From assembly GCA_029279945.1 (NCBI GenBank), contig JAJUHK010000001.1, forward strand, positions 1-64,000: a stretch of 64,000 bases of DNA, given 5' to 3'. The number at the start of each line of letters is the position of its first letter. The stretch's first letter is position 1. The DNA comes from Pseudidiomarina indica (lineage in GTDB: Bacteria; Pseudomonadota; Gammaproteobacteria; Enterobacterales; Alteromonadaceae). A program made the position numbers and the translations under genes. This document shows, piece by piece, positions 31,688-43,371 of this stretch. The notes below the pieces were generated by a model. It saw only the letters and a list, made by a program, of their open reading frames with translations. It ran no database searches and was not told the DNA's origin.

Positions 31688-31725
31688 TGCTACTGGCGTG
31701 CTATAAATTGATGCCTGCGTGCTAT
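31688..31725. repeat. Direct repeats ahead of integrase
   Basis: GCGTGCTAT occurs at 31696-31704 and 31717-31725, exactly 21 bp apart (two helical turns), with a related TGCTAC at 31688-31693. Such phased repeats next to an integrase gene are typical of arm-type integrase sites or of an autoregulatory operator. Confidence 0.5.
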
Positions 31726-31736
31726 TTTGGATATTT

Positions 31737-32951
31737 ATGCTTACAGACAGACAACTTAAAAGCTGGACCAAGACCCCTCCGGAGAAAACACAAGAAATCT
31801 CAATTGGCAATCGACTGTACGCCAGAGTGACGGATAAGGGCGCGATTTCTTTTCAGTTTCGCTACCGTATTGGTGGCCGCAATACCCGAATTACGCTTGG
31901 CTCATATCCGTTGCTGACGCTCAAATCAGCTCGAGATGAGGCTACACGATTGTCCGTGGTGCTGCAAGAAGGAGGCGATCCCAAAGTCGCTGCTCGTTCT
32001 CGATACTCGGGTGGTGAGTGGACGCTCGACAAGTGCCTGGATGAGTGGCTTAACAAACATGTAGCACGTCAGCTGAAAAATAGCACGAAGGTAAATTACA
32101 CCAGTATTGCTGAGACGCATCTCAAAGGGCGCTATTCGGTCCCAGTTGAACGGATCCGGATGGATGAATGGTTAACACTGTTCGACAGTATAGCTGAGAA
32201 GACATCCTCCTATAATGCCGGTGTTGTGCTGAAGGTAACCAAAAGGGCGCTTGGCTGGTGTATGCGCCGCGAGTTGATTAACCCGCCATCGGTGATGAAT
32301 CTGGAAGTAAGCACGATTGGTACCAGCAAAAGCCAGCGAGACCGGGTTCTTGAGTTGCATGAGGTTGGTTTGATTTGGATGGCCGTTGAAAATACCAAGC
32401 TGTCGTTGGCCGTTCGCAACTGTATAAAGCTCATTATGCTCACCGGTGCCAGAAACTCGGAGGTCAGGGAAGCAAAGTGGAAAGAATTCGACTTCGATAA
32501 TCGAATCTGGACAGTTCCCAAGGAGCGAAGTAAAACAGGCGTTGCTATCCGTCGACCACTGACAGATGAAATGCTTCAGCTCGTGAACACGATGAAGTCA
32601 GCGCCCAGCCCAAACTACGTGTTTGGCTCAATGGATAATGATTTCAAAAAGCCGATCACAACGCACGCAATTCAGCGCGCAGTCAGACGTTTAAGAGCGA
32701 AGCTTAATATGGACGACTGGCGTGCTCATGACTTCAGGAGAACGTTAGCGACTCGGTTATCGGAGCAAGGTATACAGCCGCACGTAGTTGAAAAAATGCT
32801 GGGGCACAGTCTTGGCGGTGTATTAGCTGTATACAACCGCCATGACTGGATTAACGAGCAAAAAGAGGCTTATGACACTTGGTACCAGTTAGTCATTGAT
32901 GCTGCGGAGACAGCAGCCAGACGACTTACTGAAGGCCAGCAAACTTTCTGA
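31737..32951 (+). CDS. int: Tyrosine-type phage integrase, DUF4102 N-terminal arm domain
   Basis: 404 residues from the ATG at 31737 (MLTDRQLKSW). The N-terminal DUF4102 arm-binding domain (RLYARVTDKGAISFQFRYRIGGRNTRITLGSYPLLTLKSAR) is followed by a core-binding domain and the catalytic domain with Arg (TGARNSEV), Lys (ERSKTG), His-x-x-Arg (HDFRRTLAT), His (LGHSLGG) and Tyr (VYNRHDW): complete. P4-type integrase. It converges on the AlpA gene with a 26-base overlap. Confidence 0.95.
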   Translation: MLTDRQLKSWTKTPPEKTQEISIGNRLYARVTDKGAISFQFRYRIGGRNTRITLGSYPLLTLKSARDEATRLSVVLQEGGDPKVAARSRYSGGEWTLDKCLDEWLNKHVARQLKNSTKVNYTSIAETHLKGRYSVPVERIRMDEWLTLFDSIAEKTSSYNAGVVLKVTKRALGWCMRRELINPPSVMNLEVSTIGTSKSQRDRVLELHEVGLIWMAVENTKLSLAVRNCIKLIMLTGARNSEVREAKWKEFDFDNRIWTVPKERSKTGVAIRRPLTDEMLQLVNTMKSAPSPNYVFGSMDNDFKKPITTHAIQRAVRRLRAKLNMDDWRAHDFRRTLATRLSEQGIQPHVVEKMLGHSLGGVLAVYNRHDWINEQKEAYDTWYQLVIDAAETAARRLTEGQQTF

Positions 32952-38551: not shown

Positions 38552-38632
38552 ATTTATTTTATGGCTTTGTTTTTGTGCTTGGTTAGGGCATGATTAAAAC
38601 GCCGATATTTAAAGGCGTTAAAGGGAGATTTG

Positions 38633-39304
38633 ATGATGAGATTATTTGGAATTATTTTTTTAGCTTTGGCCGTATCGGGGTGTGCGCAGCAGAAGTTTAA
38701 CTACACGCCAAAATACGAAAACTTAAGCTATCCACCCACTGGTGAAGTCGTAACAGCACACTTGGGTGAGCGGATGTTGATTCAGGGGCTTCGCATCGAT
38801 ACAGAAGCGGTTCGAGTTAAAAACACAGACACTTTTGGCCTCGCATATACAGTTACGCCAGGCACGTTCTTAAAGCATGGCGAAGATGAACGACGAATCT
38901 ATTACCACGCTCATACAGGGGAAGGAGCTGGCATTGTTACTTCAGCAGCACTGGCAGATCCATTTTCTGGGGTAATGGTCGATAAAAAATCAAACGAATT
39001 CTGCATAGTATCGGTGTATGGAACATACTCATGTAGCGATGACACCGAATTTGAGCTGGTAGAAATCCCTGTAATTCGTAGTGACAACATGCAACAGACG
39101 CTAATTTACAGCGGCCGAGTAGGTAACAAGATCAACGTTGTTTATCGTGAGTTTCAGGGTGACACCATTCGCCAGGCGTTCACCAATGCTGTCGAGTATG
39201 ACTTATCTGAGTCAGACGTTATTGGTTACAAAGGGGCAAGAATAAAGGTTATAGAAGCAACAAATCAGCAAATCACTTACGAGGTGATTAGCAATTTTAA
39301 TTAA
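38633..39304 (+). CDS. Prophage lipoprotein (moron candidate)
   Basis: About 223 residues with a lipoprotein signal (LAVSGC, Cys about 17-18), GGGAG upstream. The mature region is beta-rich, with a paired Cys (FCIVSVYGTYSCSDD). Transcribed opposite to the flanking phage genes and isolated between PL and a hairpin, the usual setting of a moron expressed in the lysogen. Family unknown; an envelope role such as receptor masking is speculative. Confidence 0.7.
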   Translation: MMRLFGIIFLALAVSGCAQQKFNYTPKYENLSYPPTGEVVTAHLGERMLIQGLRIDTEAVRVKNTDTFGLAYTVTPGTFLKHGEDERRIYYHAHTGEGAGIVTSAALADPFSGVMVDKKSNEFCIVSVYGTYSCSDDTEFELVEIPVIRSDNMQQTLIYSGRVGNKINVVYREFQGDTIRQAFTNAVEYDLSESDVIGYKGARIKVIEATNQQITYEVISNFN

Positions 39305-39323
39305 GGCCTGCTAGCGCAGGCCT
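39304..39323. terminator. Hairpin between convergent lipoprotein genes
   Basis: AGGCCTGC, loop TAGC, GCAGGCCT: a perfect 8-bp stem between the two convergent genes. T-runs are weak on both sides, so termination may be partial. Confidence 0.55.
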
Positions 39324-39328
39324 ACTGC

Positions 39329-39658
39329 TTACATTGAGATATCTTCTAAGTACCACTTCTTATCATACTTAGAGTGGCGCAACGTTAGGCTGTAGTTTGT
39401 TCTAGTCATTGCGCCAAAACCATTCTGCGCATCGACATAGCCACGAACGTGAAACTTGCAGTCATCCATGATTGATACATAAACACCCTTATCCGACATC
39501 CATGGAAAATCAGCTGTTGATGGTGCTCGAAGTCGCTGCTCCACAAATTTTTTACCCATAACGTACGCCATAGATTTATCTTGGCATGGGTCTTTCGGTT
39601 TGCTCTCTGAACACCCAACAAGCGACAAGGCAATTGCGATTGGTAATAGTACTTTCAC
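39329..39658 (-). CDS. Small prophage lipoprotein
   Basis: 109 residues; signal ends in LVGC (lipobox). Mature part has three further Cys and the stretch KKFVEQRLRAPSTADFPW, a pattern I have seen repeatedly in small phage or plasmid lipoproteins, then YSLTLRHSKYDKKWYLEDI at the end. Convergent with the preceding lipoprotein. Function unknown. Confidence 0.7.
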   Translation of the reverse strand: MKVLLPIAIALSLVGCSESKPKDPCQDKSMAYVMGKKFVEQRLRAPSTADFPWMSDKGVYVSIMDDCKFHVRGYVDAQNGFGAMTRTNYSLTLRHSKYDKKWYLEDISM

Positions 39659-39732: not shown

Positions 39733-39918
39733 TTACATAAAGTTCCACTCCGGCTGGCGCGTGCTGATGGTGATTTCACCTGCAGCTGAAGCAACGTGCT
39801 GGCGCAGTTCGTCACCAGTGGAAGCGTCAAGCTGCAGCTGATGATTTACCGTTACCAATTCACCGCTTTTGGTTAACACCTGGTAACTCACATACACCGC
39901 GCAAATATCGTTATTCAT
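39733..39918 (-). CDS. Small phage protein, unknown function
   Basis: About 61 residues from MNNDICAVYVSYQVLTKSGELVTVNHQLQL; GAGG lies nine bases upstream of this ATG. The open frame continues upstream to 40062, but that extension has no good start signal and looks non-coding. No family recognised. Confidence 0.45.
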   Translation of the reverse strand: MNNDICAVYVSYQVLTKSGELVTVNHQLQLDASTGDELRQHVASAAGEITISTRQPEWNFM

Positions 39919-40239
39919 TTTCCAGTTCCTCATTTGGTTGATGAAGACCTGAACCCATGGATTCATACCTGAGGCGGCCACTCCCCAGGGTGGTCGATTG
40001 ATTGACCAGTCAAGTTGGAGTGTATATTGCCACGTTTTTATTTTTGCTCTACAAAATCGCAACAGTTTGAATTTAATAGGCTTTACTGGTTAACGCGAGG
40101 GTGAAACGACGGGTTTAATAGAAGTAAGGCGCCAGCTGCAGTGGCTAGTGATTGGGTAGGGCGGCGACAACGGTCACCAAAAAGAGAGGGCGCATACCAC
40201 AATTTGCGATATATGCTACTCAATACTCATCGATGATAT
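39919..40239. other. Non-coding stretch downstream of the Rex-like pair
   Basis: About 320 bases with no supported gene. It contains TTGACCAGTCAA (40002-40013), a 12-base near-palindrome whose minus-strand TTGACT could be a -35 for the small gene at 39733. No clear terminator for the upstream cI operon was found. Confidence 0.4.
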
Positions 40240-40899
40240 TTAGGGTTTATTCTCAGTTTCACTGTTATCCTTATCAGCATCATCCATTCGATTGCTGACT
40301 ATTGCACGCTCAATATTACCAACGAGCTCAATAAGTTTAGCAGTTTCACTGTTATCCTTATCAGCATCATCCATTCGATGGCTTACTATCGATCGGCCTA
40401 AATTACCAACCAACTCGATAATTTCAATTACCAAAATAAAGCAATAAAACATTGCAGTGCCGAAGATAAAATTGAACAACAAGCCAGGCTCACTGGGCTT
40501 GAATATAGAGTTCAAAAGCAATACCACAACGATTAGCGACAATGGGTAACCAAAATTGAAAGGTAGCGATTTCAGCAACGACTCATTTTCTTTAAAAACG
40601 TGATCGGGAATAGAGTAGGGCAACAAAAATGTTAAAGCATAAGCCCCTAGCGCAAAACCAACAAAATCAGGGAAAACATCTGATATCACTGAAGATGGAG
40701 AAAAGTTAAAACCTATAACAGCTGTTAAGATCATTGCAGCCAGTGACATTAATGCGGCGTAAAAGACATCTTTAAAGATACATTCAAGCCATAGTGTATT
40801 TGGAGCGATTCTTGTAATGTATTCTGGCTTGCCATCTAAAACATATGCGTTAGCAAATTTTATTAGCAAGCCGAGTATCGGAATATTGTAACGCTTCAC
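40240..40899 (-). CDS. Four-helix membrane protein behind cI (RexB-like position)
   Basis: 219 residues. Four hydrophobic segments at about 45-66, 74-96, 115-135 and 141-163 predict four transmembrane helices; the last 55 residues are a soluble tail made of two near-identical 29-residue repeats ending RMDDADKDNSET. Third gene of a tight leftward unit cI - 303-residue protein - this gene (gaps 17 and 27 bases). Lambda rexB, also a 4-TM protein, holds the same place. Likely made in the lysogen. No sequence family recognised. Confidence 0.75.
   Translation of the reverse strand: MKRYNIPILGLLIKFANAYVLDGKPEYITRIAPNTLWLECIFKDVFYAALMSLAAMILTAVIGFNFSPSSVISDVFPDFVGFALGAYALTFLLPYSIPDHVFKENESLLKSLPFNFGYPLSLIVVVLLLNSIFKPSEPGLLFNFIFGTAMFYCFILVIEIIELVGNLGRSIVSHRMDDADKDNSETAKLIELVGNIERAIVSNRMDDADKDNSETENKP
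40254..40379. repeat. 39-bp direct repeat in the membrane-protein tail
   Basis: An identical 39-base segment occurs at 40254-40292 and 40341-40379, period 87 bases (29 codons). Adjacent bases are similar but diverged, so only part of the duplicated unit is kept identical. Confidence 0.85.
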
Positions 40900-40926
40900 A
40901 AGTATACACCTCCATGCCCCAAAATT

Positions 40927-41838
40927 TTAAACATCTTTGTTAGAGGCTCTATTCCACGCTGAGGTAATAGTCTGCTTTATCTTACTGATTATGTCACCTT
41001 CTTTCATATTTTTAGTTATTCGTATTGATCGCTCCTCAACTGGGTGGTCTTTAGAAAAATATGACTTTAACTTTGATGTTGCTGGATCAATATATCGCGC
41101 TTTTGCATGCCCCCACCGAGATGCTAGTTCTATGTATGCTTTGGTAAAGTCGCTTAATCCATCAATATAACCTTCTTCACCACCGGATTCTTTGTATTCC
41201 ATTGAGTGAACGCCGCGGCTCTGCAGTTCTTTCTCAATTTTCCTTGCGCTACCTTTAAGCGCGTTATTGGGATTAGAGAATGTGAGTTTAACCTCAACTC
41301 TTTTAATGCTTTTAGCGACGAATAACTCGCTGTAAGAGTTCGCCTCTGTGAGAACATGGCAGTTAAAACTGTGCGTTTTAAAGGTATTGTGAAGCGGCTG
41401 TTGAAAGATGTTCGTTAACGCGTCTTCCAACGCAAGTACGCTGGGAAAGCCTGATCCTTGGATGGCCATCACGTGTTTATTGAAATCGAATACGAACATA
41501 AATTTTCTTTTCGATGAGACCCCTGCCTTGCCATCGCTTTCACTAAAAAGCTCTTCCCCAGTGTAAAAATCGTCAACCTGTCTAACCTTGTTGTATCTGA
41601 CGAGCGTTCCAAACGCTAAATCTGGTTGAACTTTTACAGAGTCAAAAACAAGATAATATTCAGAGCGCTTCAAGCGATGCCCAAGTTCGTGAAGTTTCTT
41701 TTCTTCTCTGGCCTTATCTACCAATCTTGAAAGCTCAGTAAAAAGCTTTTTGTAACCCTCTTGGCCAATAAAGCCAGGCCCTCCCTGTCTCTTTGTTTTC
41801 AAAGGTAAGACTTGCATATTGACGTACATGATAGGCAT
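40927..41838 (-). CDS. 303-residue soluble protein behind cI (RexA-like position)
   Basis: 303 residues, no signal or transmembrane segment; AAGGAA eight bases before the ATG. Starts 17 bases after the cI stop, so probably cotranscribed with it. Mixed alpha/beta with KRKFMFVFDFNKHVMAIQ near the middle and KRVEVKLTF at about 180-190. The size, place and pattern of a beta-strand VKVEAKL-like segment recall lambda RexA, the soluble sensor of the Rex system; DUF4747-type proteins are another faint resemblance. No confident family assignment. Confidence 0.72.
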   Translation of the reverse strand: MPIMYVNMQVLPLKTKRQGGPGFIGQEGYKKLFTELSRLVDKAREEKKLHELGHRLKRSEYYLVFDSVKVQPDLAFGTLVRYNKVRQVDDFYTGEELFSESDGKAGVSSKRKFMFVFDFNKHVMAIQGSGFPSVLALEDALTNIFQQPLHNTFKTHSFNCHVLTEANSYSELFVAKSIKRVEVKLTFSNPNNALKGSARKIEKELQSRGVHSMEYKESGGEEGYIDGLSDFTKAYIELASRWGHAKARYIDPATSKLKSYFSKDHPVEERSIRITKNMKEGDIISKIKQTITSAWNRASNKDV

Positions 41839-41855
41839 GACTAGTTTCCTTATTG

Positions 41856-42467
41856 TTATAACTCACCAATCCGCAGTACGACGCGGCCAACCACTTCAAT
41901 GGCATCCTGCTTGTTTGGTGGTAGGGTTTCATCAGGAACTGCAGCGGTGTTATCTGAGCGCAGCAGTAGTCCGTTGATACGTTTAAATAAACGCTTGATG
42001 ATGAGCGCATCGGCATAGCGCACGATGTAAACCTTGCCATCTTTCACTTCACGGTCGTGTGTATCGACCACCAAAACGTCACCCTCGCGAATGCTTGGCG
42101 ACATCGAGTCATCTGGGGCAGGCATCCAATACAGCGATTCTAGATCGAGGTTTTGGGTTTCGAGCATTTCCTTTTGGAACGGCTTGTCGGGCCCACCGGT
42201 CATTAAGCTCGGAATTGGGTAAGAGTCAGATAGATGAATTGAATCTGGATCAAGAGGTATCAATTCACCGCCATCCAAAAGCCAATTAGGAGTAACCTTC
42301 AGCGCATCCGCTAGCGCAAGTAAATTTTTACCTTTGGGTACGGTGTATCCGTTGAGCCAACCATGGACGGTGCTCTTAGATGCACCGGTTGCTCTGACCA
42401 AGTCAACCTGCTTTAACTTCAGGTCTTTTACTCTGAGTTTTATTCTATCGCTTATCATAGAATTCAT
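41856..42467 (-). CDS. cI: CI-type repressor (XRE helix-turn-helix plus S24 peptidase)
   Basis: About 203 residues. N-terminal helix-turn-helix KLKQVDLVRATGASKSTVHGWLNGY; C-terminal LexA-like domain with catalytic Ser in DDSMSPSIREGDVLVVD and Lys in YADALIIKRLF. It maintains lysogeny and would be inactivated through RecA. The usual Ala-Gly cleavage pair is not obvious; the linker has MTGGP. Divergent from cro, with palindromic operators between. Start may be 42467 or 42458. Confidence 0.9.
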   Translation of the reverse strand: MNSMISDRIKLRVKDLKLKQVDLVRATGASKSTVHGWLNGYTVPKGKNLLALADALKVTPNWLLDGGELIPLDPDSIHLSDSYPIPSLMTGGPDKPFQKEMLETQNLDLESLYWMPAPDDSMSPSIREGDVLVVDTHDREVKDGKVYIVRYADALIIKRLFKRINGLLLRSDNTAAVPDETLPPNKQDAIEVVGRVVLRIGEL

Positions 42468-42477
42468 CTTATCCGAA

Positions 42478-42552
42478 CTTCTGGTTCTGAAACTCAATCA
42501 TTTTGGTTCTTGACCAACTCAAATTTTGCGTATAGAGTTCTGTTATCAGAAC
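42478..42552. promoter_or_regulatory. OR/PR region between cI and cro
   Basis: Perfect palindrome GTTCTGTTATCAGAAC (42537-42552); a second palindrome TTGGTTCTTGACCAA (42503-42517); and a weaker CTTCTG-GTTC-TGAAAC (42478-42493). PR for cro: TTGACC (42510-42515) with TATAGA (42531-42536) or TAGAGT (42533-42538). The first site lies directly downstream of the -10 and the second covers the -35: a lambda-like three-site operator. Confidence 0.65.
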
Positions 42553-42569
42553 ATTTGAGCGAGGTAAAA

Positions 42570-42785
42570 ATGACCAAAACAGAAGCTATTGAGTTTTTAG
42601 GCTCACAAGCAGCGTTAGGCCGTCTATTGAACCGCGCCAAATCTACCGTATCGGATTGGCCTGAAAAGCTACCCCGCGGTGTGCAATTTGAGCTCCACGT
42701 AAAGACAGGCGGCAAACTGTCAGTGGATGCGGAGTTTATTAACCAACCCTTCGACCAAAGGATAGAGAACAATGCGACAGCCTGA
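42570..42785 (+). CDS. cro: Cro/YdaS-type regulator
   Basis: 71 residues from MTKTEAIEFLGSQAALGRLLNRAKSTVSDW, a YdaS/Cro helix-turn-helix with LPRGVQFELHVKTGGKL after it. GAGGT five bases before the ATG. First gene of the rightward operon; should turn off CI synthesis during lytic growth. Overlaps the next gene by 14 bases. Confidence 0.85.
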   Translation: MTKTEAIEFLGSQAALGRLLNRAKSTVSDWPEKLPRGVQFELHVKTGGKLSVDAEFINQPFDQRIENNATA

Positions 42786-43371
42786 AACGTCAGCGTTCGT
42801 ACAGAAAATAAGCAGACCACAAGTGATCCGTAATTATGTGGCCAAGGCGCTCAATCGACGCGGAATATTATTTAAAGTCTACGTTGAGCGTGCTATCACG
42901 CATTACACAAAAAGCGTTCCTGAAGACCTACGAGAGCTTAAGCCGTTTGATACAGATACAGTCAACGGCCTAGTGGCCGCTGAAAAACGCATATCACGTC
43001 TTGTTCACACGCCCATCAATGACAAACCGCAATCAATACCTAGCGAGCTTGAAGAAGCACTGGTTGAGGCCTTGCCTGAGCCGGAGCGCTCGGAAGCTCG
43101 TGCAGCTCTTTGTGAGCGTTACGGCGTTATTCCGGTGCGCCAATCAGAATTAAGTTGCAAAAATGCTGAGCTTGCTGACCTTGGCTCCTTCGCCCGTGAA
43201 AGCGGGGAGGCGATTCATCAGTTAAGCAAGGTGCTCACGCAAGCCGGCATCGAGAATATGCCGGTGAAAGATGTGATGCTGGCGCGTAAAGAGTTGATGG
43301 ACGTTGTTGAAGCGGCCATGTGCATCAAGCGTCAGATTGATGTCGTGCTCGAAAGTGGTCGTGAGCAATGA
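42772..43371 (+). CDS. Phage early protein in the CII position
   Basis: 199 residues, basic N-terminus (SRPQVIRNYVAKALNRRGILFKVYVERAI) and an acidic helical middle (IPSELEEALVEALPEPERSEARAALCERYG). It sits between cro and the replication gene, where CII- or YdaT-like regulators are found, but no such domain can be shown. ATGA overlap with the following gene. Confidence 0.6.
   Translation: MRQPETSAFVQKISRPQVIRNYVAKALNRRGILFKVYVERAITHYTKSVPEDLRELKPFDTDTVNGLVAAEKRISRLVHTPINDKPQSIPSELEEALVEALPEPERSEARAALCERYGVIPVRQSELSCKNAELADLGSFARESGEAIHQLSKVLTQAGIENMPVKDVMLARKELMDVVEAAMCIKRQIDVVLESGREQ

What the first reader, a model, noticed from the sequence alone, without database searches (positions are those of the whole stretch)
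40240..42467. Rex-like exclusion module: cI followed by a soluble protein and a 4-TM membrane protein
Seen: cI, a 303-residue soluble protein and a 219-residue four-helix membrane protein lie in tandem with 17- and 27-base gaps on one strand. Known: lambda cI-rexA-rexB has the same order, with RexA soluble (about 280 residues) and RexB a 4-TM protein, expressed in the lysogen and excluding other phages. Neither product here has a recognisable family, and the membrane protein has a repeated cytoplasmic tail absent from RexB. Inference: a divergent or new two-component superinfection-exclusion or defence system. The Kiwa pair (KwaA 4-TM, KwaB about 315 residues) is a second architectural relative, though in opposite order.
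Basis: partly seen in the sequence, partly recalled or inferred. Interest (0 to 1): 0.78.

Follow-up and report, generated by a model that had tools for sequence, protein, structure and literature searches.

The report
Prophage Rex-like phage-exclusion gene pair
A dormant virus in this bacterium carries, right after its own repressor gene, a pair of genes that look like a distant version of the classic lambda Rex system, which is thought to make an infected cell shut down so that rival viruses cannot multiply; the kind is known, this member is new and untested.

Summary
The anatomy is real: cI (41856-42467), a 303-aa soluble protein (40927-41838) and a 219-aa four-helix membrane protein (40240-40899) lie in tandem on the minus strand of a prophage, with 17- and 27-nt gaps. 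One statement is wrong: the soluble protein has a family, DUF4747 (60.8 bits, cut-off 27). Its AlphaFold2 model (pLDDT 80, pTM 0.82) has lambda RexA as its two best hits in the PDB, the only ones at E<=0.001, followed by RdgC, RexA's published structural relative; whole-chain TM is only about 0.3. Profile comparisons do not reach RexA, RexB or the CarolAnn proteins. In 17 of 17 distinct relative loci a multi-helix membrane gene follows on the same strand. Kiwa is not supported. Most likely a RexAB-type abortive-infection module, a kind already labelled 'DUF4747/CarolAnn prophage system' in print. PADLOC models detect lambda RexAB but not this pair. The repeated tail is an 84-nt tandem duplication absent from the nearest relative. 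No function was tested.

The parts
41856..42467 (-). cI-like repressor, HTH + S24 peptidase domain, 203 aa; first gene of the putative operon
   Evidence: PF01381 and PF00717, phrog_4 transcriptional repressor
40927..41838 (-). RexA-like soluble protein, 303 aa, DUF4747 family; putative infection sensor
   Evidence: PF15931 E 1.8e-16; phrog_10040 E 3.6e-25; AF2 model; best PDB hits are lambda RexA 8TWQ
40240..40899 (-). RexB-like four-helix membrane protein, 219 aa, GTG start; putative channel/effector
   Evidence: phrog_27113 E 2.1e-16; helices; invariant residues FP...GF..G..AL.F and YPL in its 11-sequence subfamily; profile match to partners of core DUF4747 proteins 94.6% over 102 columns
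40254..40424 (-). tandem duplication of 84 nt (two copies) encoding the repeated C-terminal tail
   Evidence: the relative L003/L021 has one copy
42468..42569 (.). cI-cro intergenic region, presumed operators and promoters
   Evidence: divergent cI and cro-like genes; short imperfect repeats only; operators inferred
42570..42785 (+). Cro-like repressor (P22_Cro)
   Evidence: PF14549 E 3.3e-10; start codon chosen by reading the sequence
41839..41855 (-). 17-nt gap between cI and the RexA-like gene; no terminator-like site
40900..40926 (-). 27-nt gap with a GGAGGTG ribosome-binding sequence before the membrane-protein gene; no terminator-like site; one promoter-like match (9 of 12, chance level) overlaps it
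   Evidence: the ribosome-binding motif is read directly from the sequence

Best explanation
It is a prophage-encoded RexAB-type abortive-infection module of the DUF4747 branch. The soluble protein (RexA fold, probably a dimer) is made together with cI in the lysogen and senses something produced by an infecting phage. It then opens the four-helix membrane protein in the inner membrane. Leakage of ions stops growth and macromolecular synthesis, so the infection aborts. Shown here: gene order, family, fold match, conserved partnership, purifying selection. Inferred from the tested relatives (lambda RexAB, CarolAnn 44/43, Sbash 30/31, P. putida RexABpp): co-expression, dimerisation, triggering, channel opening, phage exclusion.
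For: DUF4747 membership and profile match to seven core DUF4747 proteins, 98.5% over 257 columns. Foldseek: lambda RexA chains ranks 1 and 2, RdgC 3 and 4; the RexA paper found RdgC as RexA's structural relative. Order repressor, RexA-like, membrane protein as in lambda-type phages and CarolAnn, seen again in another DUF4747 lineage with a Phage_CI_repr/S24 repressor upstream (L015). Multi-helix partner downstream in 17 of 17 distinct loci. Low dN/dS. Three relatives have other defence-type genes upstream: a type I specificity subunit (L005), a PLD/SNF2 helicase (L022) and an RT-Toprim gene (L020); these three were scanned because they looked so, and the other neighbours were not scanned against PADLOC. 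In print: RexA overexpression triggers RexB-dependent growth arrest and membrane damage in P. putida; the CarolAnn and Sbash pairs exclude phages.
Against: Profile-profile comparison of this subfamily finds no match to RexA, RexB, CarolAnn/Sbash/Sejanus RexA-like proteins or their partners, and the core DUF4747 pair finds no match to RexA, RexB or the CarolAnn-group soluble proteins either. The Foldseek hit has a whole-chain TM-score of only 0.29-0.31 and rmsd about 14 A; I read this as two domains in a different orientation, but no domain-wise superposition was run. Positions that an insignificant alignment puts on RexA's DNA-binding R219/K221 are not conserved in the subfamily. The membrane model matches nothing in the PDB at E<=0.001. 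In the other 15 of 17 relative loci I recognised no repressor directly upstream (by reading ORFs; some flanks are about 1.5 kb). No phage was tested.
Confidence: 0.72

Rival explanations
1. Butters-like arrangement: the soluble protein is the antiviral effector itself and the membrane protein holds it inactive until infection.
For: In phage Butters gp30 alone abolishes infection by two phages and gp31 may affect its localisation; the architecture is alike.
Against: Butters is described as the exception among five systems; in CarolAnn, Sbash and P. putida, as in lambda, both proteins are needed and the membrane protein is the effector.
Confidence: 0.12
2. Regulatory module of the prophage: the RexA-like protein mainly biases the cI/Cro switch or induction, and phage exclusion is secondary or absent.
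For: Lambda RexA binds DNA and can bias the switch toward lysis independently of RexB (abstract); the pair sits in the immunity operon.
Against: In 15 of 17 relative loci no repressor was recognised directly upstream (reading only), three have other defence-type genes upstream, and the membrane partner is kept in 17 of 17.
Confidence: 0.07
3. Kiwa-like system: a membrane protein senses attachment and the soluble protein acts on DNA (mechanism recalled).
Against: No match to Pfam KwaB, no profile match to KwaB or KwaA (only two sequences in each Kiwa alignment), opposite gene order, and the fold hit is RexA.
Confidence: 0.03
4. Other lysogenic-conversion pair without a role in phage exclusion, e.g. 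stress or membrane physiology of the lysogen.
For: No function was tested; in the passages that I saw of the five papers holding the word DUF4747, none tests a PF15931 protein.
Against: RexA fold, partner conservation, defence-gene neighbours in three loci.
Confidence: 0.06

Closest known systems
Lambda RexA/RexB (Pfam PF15969/PF15968)
   Same: Order repressor-rexA-rexB on one strand (clearest in the annotated Klebsiella and Hafnia phages; the lambda record's own labels are faulty), soluble protein then membrane protein; predicted fold of the soluble protein hits RexA 8TWQ first.
   Different: No detectable profile similarity; neither protein matches the RexA/RexB HMMs of Pfam (these do hit lambda) or PADLOC. 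The membrane protein is longer (219 against 144 aa) and has a repeated tail.
Gordonia phage CarolAnn gp44/gp43 and mycobacteriophage Sbash gp30/gp31
   Same: Prophage pair of a RexA-like and a 4-TM protein; in CarolAnn downstream of the repressor; reported weak HHpred match to DUF4747.
   Different: Soluble proteins of 370-372 aa against 303; no profile match to this pair; CarolAnn gp44 and Sbash gp30 do not match PF15931 by HMMER at E<=1.
DUF4747 (PF15931) gene pairs, e.g. L005, L006, L014-L018; 'DUF4747/CarolAnn prophage system' of the CapKS paper
   Same: Same family of soluble protein and a matching membrane partner.
   Different: This member is divergent: 60.8 bits, against 156-231 for seven of the eight other genome hits and 65.1 for L019; it lies in the immunity operon of a prophage.
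P. putida RexABpp (PP_5643/PP_5644)
   Same: Prophage RexA-like DNA-binding protein and 4-TM effector downstream of a CI-like repressor.
   Different: Its sequences were not compared here; two genes lie between cI and the pair there.
Kiwa KwaA/KwaB
   Same: A roughly 200-aa protein next to a roughly 300-aa soluble protein.
   Different: No sequence or profile match; opposite order.

Membership tests
DUF4747 (PF15931) | Pfam HMM score above the curated cut-off | tested here: met
   60.8 bits against 27; profile comparison with core members 98.5%
DUF4747 (PF15931) | multi-helix membrane partner encoded directly downstream (working criterion from the loci read here) | tested here: met
   window and 17 of 17 other distinct loci; partner profiles match at 94.6% over 102 columns
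RexAB-type exclusion system | RexA two-domain fold in the soluble protein | tested here: met
   8TWQ ranks 1-2, E 2.1e-8 and 9.7e-6, prob 1.00; whole-chain TM only 0.29-0.31, domains not superposed apart
RexAB-type exclusion system | four-helix membrane partner | tested here: met
RexAB-type exclusion system | genes follow the prophage repressor on the same strand (lambda, CarolAnn; not required, Sbash differs) | tested here: met
RexAB-type exclusion system | RexA dimerises and binds DNA without sequence specificity | not testable with these tools
   needs purified protein; positions put on RexA's DNA-binding residues are not conserved
RexAB-type exclusion system | excludes heterotypic phages; membrane damage on activation | not testable with these tools
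   needs plating and membrane assays
RexA/RexB Pfam families (PF15969/PF15968) | HMM match | tested here: not met
   no match at E<=10 while lambda proteins match
CarolAnn/Sbash sequence families | sequence or profile homology | tested here: not met
   hhalign probability 0.1-0.2%; three sequences in each CarolAnn alignment
Kiwa | KwaA and KwaB homology | tested here: not met
   no Pfam KwaB match; hhalign 0.1-0.2% with two-sequence Kiwa alignments

The most novel reading that the evidence does not exclude
The DUF4747 pairs are a separate branch of Rex systems spread over Pseudomonadota, without detectable sequence similarity to lambda RexAB, missed by PADLOC in the two pairs tested and untested in the papers found. 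In the window's subfamily the membrane partner carries its own signature (FP...GF..G..AL...YPL). The branch may share only the RexA/RdgC-fold DNA clamp with lambda and have recruited a different four-helix effector, so that 'Rex' would be a sensor fold combined with interchangeable membrane effectors.
Probability: 0.3. Interest if true: 0.6.

Novelty: new member of a known kind. Interest (0 to 1): 0.42.

Why it matters
How T4 rII infection activates lambda Rex is still unknown 70 years after the discovery, and only five RexAB-like systems are described according to the P. putida paper. A conserved, sequence-divergent branch that keeps the RexA fold gives independent material for finding what is essential in sensor and channel. 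It also shows a gap in defence annotation: PADLOC-DB 2.0.0 detects lambda RexA/RexB but neither this pair nor the one core DUF4747 pair tested, L014.

Tried and rejected
Kiwa relationship: tested by HMM, profile comparison and fold search, not supported. Direct tblastn of both proteins in 50,697 phage records: nothing at 1e-5; at E<=10 only two records of one Microbacterium phage at E 6. PDB by sequence: six unrelated matches at E 0.6-1.1. Fold search of the membrane protein: no match at E<=0.001. Promoter and terminator scan 39900-42900: no excess over shuffles (5 against 5.8; 3 against 2.7); one promoter-like match lies over the gap before the membrane gene and terminator-like matches lie inside cI and inside the membrane gene, so the scan neither shows nor excludes a single transcript. 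phrog_10040 and phrog_27113 in 369 genomes of the class: 1 of 369 (the window's own) and 2 of 369 (own plus one weak hit not followed, L010); in the 14 control genomes each rang once, in Haloferax volcanii and in Sulfolobus acidocaldarius, not looked into. PF15931 rang in 0 of 14 controls. A hydropathy count with cut-off 1.6 found only 2 or 3 helices in the eight partners read; with cut-off 1.5 it finds 4 in ten and 3 in one (L027) of the eleven partners read. P. putida PP_5643/PP_5644 sequences were not fetched. Core membrane partners were not compared with CarolAnn gp43.

Not in print, as far as searched: (listings) showed no paper on this prophage pair; of the five papers holding 'DUF4747' I saw passages only. 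Only open-access papers are held.

Full report
Observation. cI is 41856-42467, the soluble protein 40927-41838 (303 aa) and the membrane protein 40240-40899 (219 aa, GTG start), all on the minus strand, with gaps of 17 and 27 nt. No terminator-like site lies in either gap; one promoter-like match at chance level overlaps the second. A P22_Cro-type gene (42570-42785) diverges from cI, so this is a lambda-like immunity region. The surroundings are a prophage: tyrosine integrase at 31719-32951, RecT and a YqaJ-type recombinase, then ORFs on the plus strand that I read as terminase, portal, head and tail genes (reading only). A relative at 95% protein identity is in Idiomarina loihiensis SN11 and in an IMG/VR contig.

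Family. There is one: DUF4747, PF15931, 60.8 bits against a cut-off of 27, and phrog_10040 at E 3.6e-25; the membrane protein matches phrog_27113 at E 2.1e-16. NCBIfam and PADLOC give nothing for either, although PADLOC holds RexA and RexB models that hit lambda. In Pfam, RexA and RexB are separate families; they hit lambda and not the window's proteins or CarolAnn's.

Fold. An AlphaFold2 model of the soluble protein from 11 sequences reached mean pLDDT 80.2 and pTM 0.82. Foldseek against 350,542 PDB chains gave exactly two hits at E<=0.001: chains B and A of lambda RexA, 8TWQ (E 2.1e-8 and 9.7e-6, probability 1.00). Next came E. coli RdgC, 2OWL (E 1.0e-3 and 3.8e-3). The RexA structure paper (PMC11077077: abstract, passages and sections 18 and 23 read) reports RdgC as RexA's structural relative, so both hits tell one story. 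By my reading the order of elements fits RexA: a mixed N-terminal domain up to about residue 150, then four strands with helices (156-250), and a C-terminal helix (280-299) that could return to the first domain as RexA's last helix does. Against this, the whole-chain TM-score is only 0.29-0.31. The paper argues that RexA moves its domains, and I take different domain orientation as the reason, but I did not superpose domain by domain. In a library of viral models eight hits reach E<=0.001: five uncharacterised phage proteins, one exonuclease and two RdgC-type proteins.

Sequence profiles. The window's subfamily (11 sequences, A3) matches seven core DUF4747 proteins at 98.5% over 257 columns, and the membrane partners match at 94.6% over 102 columns. 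The same comparisons with RexA, RexB, the CarolAnn/Sbash/Sejanus RexA-like proteins and their partners fail (0.1-0.3%). RexA and the CarolAnn group do not find each other either. This control shows that these small alignments cannot bridge the known Rex systems, so failure says little. The published link of DUF4747 to RexA, CarolAnn, Sbash and Butters rests on HHpred matches, described as weak for CarolAnn, Sbash and Butters (PMC7542560, PMC6426606, PMC6426596: passages read). The fold result here is firmer evidence for the same link.

Partnership. I gathered related loci from whole genomes (3 of 295 genomes of the order and 7 of 398 of the phylum, the window's own counted in each), one Proteus record, GTDB contigs and viral contigs. 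After merging identical or near-identical records there are 17 distinct loci besides the window: nine with a PF15931 match, the Idiomarina relative, and seven found by tblastn with the subfamily alignment. Of those seven only L031 was scanned against Pfam, and it gave no match. In 17 of 17 a multi-helix membrane gene follows on the same strand; in the merged pair L029/L030, L030 ends before the partner. In the window's subfamily the partners share invariant residues FP...GF..G..AL.F (second helix) and YPL (start of the third), either side of the middle cytoplasmic loop. The core partners have a similar but looser motif. The Sbash paper reports invariant residues and inactivating substitutions in the middle loop of gp31. 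dN/dS is 0.06 and 0.21 in the window against L021, and 0.05 and 0.07 between L024 and L025.

Context. A Phage_CI_repr/S24 repressor precedes the pair in L015, another lineage, and cI precedes it in the Idiomarina relative, as in CarolAnn and in annotated rexA phages. In the other 15 loci I recognised no repressor directly upstream, by reading; some flanks are only about 1.5 kb. In L025 an S24 repressor gene lies about 0.6 kb beyond the membrane gene on the other strand. Three loci have defence-type genes upstream: a type I specificity subunit (L005), a PLD/SNF2 helicase (L022) and, about 850 nt away, an RT-Toprim reverse transcriptase (L020). I picked these three for scanning because they looked so, hence this is no rate. 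The CapKS paper (PMC13373217, passages read) lists 17 'DUF4747/CarolAnn prophage system' operons among the immune operons that follow capK and capS. A Salmonella genome paper lists a DUF4747 gene of 894 bp and, with the next locus tag, a 606-bp hypothetical gene (PMC11181664, passages read).

What is special here. The repeated tail is an 84-nt tandem duplication, 85% identical. The Idiomarina relative has one copy and a different end, so the repeat is a local feature and probably not part of the family's mechanism. DNA homology to that relative covers 40363-42164, stops, and resumes at 42663 (other breaks lie at 38664-39611 and 40221-40275). The cI DNA-binding half, the operator region and the start of cro have been exchanged while the cI C-terminal half and the pair were kept: the immunity was swapped and the exclusion genes were not.

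Mechanism. The best-supported reading is a RexAB-type abortive-infection pair. In P. putida the RexA-like protein, when overexpressed, triggers membrane damage and growth arrest that depend on RexB (PMC12894663: abstract and sections 8 and 12 read). In Gordonia and mycobacteria the pairs exclude phages and respond to phage proteins. None of this was tested for the window's pair, and I saw no test of a PF15931 protein in the passages read.

Verdict. It is a new member of a known kind, in a branch that PADLOC did not annotate in the two pairs tested.

Noticed in passing
window 42165-42662 against L003/L021: DNA homology with the Idiomarina loihiensis SN11 prophage breaks here and resumes on both sides: the cI DNA-binding half, operator region and start of cro are exchanged while the exclusion pair is kept.
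   Followed up: partly
window 40254-40424: 84-nt tandem duplication inside the membrane-protein gene, 85% identical, single in the nearest relative.
   Followed up: yes
L020 1299-3140 (also L024): An RT-Toprim type reverse transcriptase gene (PADLOC RT-Toprim_I-C, E 1.5e-223) lies about 850 nt upstream of a DUF4747 pair in a Proteus record.
   Followed up: partly
L020 (NZ_OL790812.1): A 4.09-Mb Proteus mirabilis record is filed as a plasmid in PLSDB; its size suggests a mislabelled chromosome.
   Followed up: no
L022 1064-4843 and L005 206-1450: A PLD/SNF2 helicase and a type I restriction specificity subunit stand directly upstream of DUF4747 pairs.
   Followed up: partly
window 38630-39304 (+) and 39329-39658 (-): Two small lipoprotein-like ORFs without Pfam match near the pair; the region differs in the relative prophage.
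   Followed up: no
L010: Weak phrog_27113 match (E 7e-4) in another genome of the class, possibly a distant membrane partner.
   Followed up: no
control genomes: phrog_10040 rang in Haloferax volcanii and phrog_27113 in Sulfolobus acidocaldarius; chance or archaeal relatives, not looked into.
   Followed up: no
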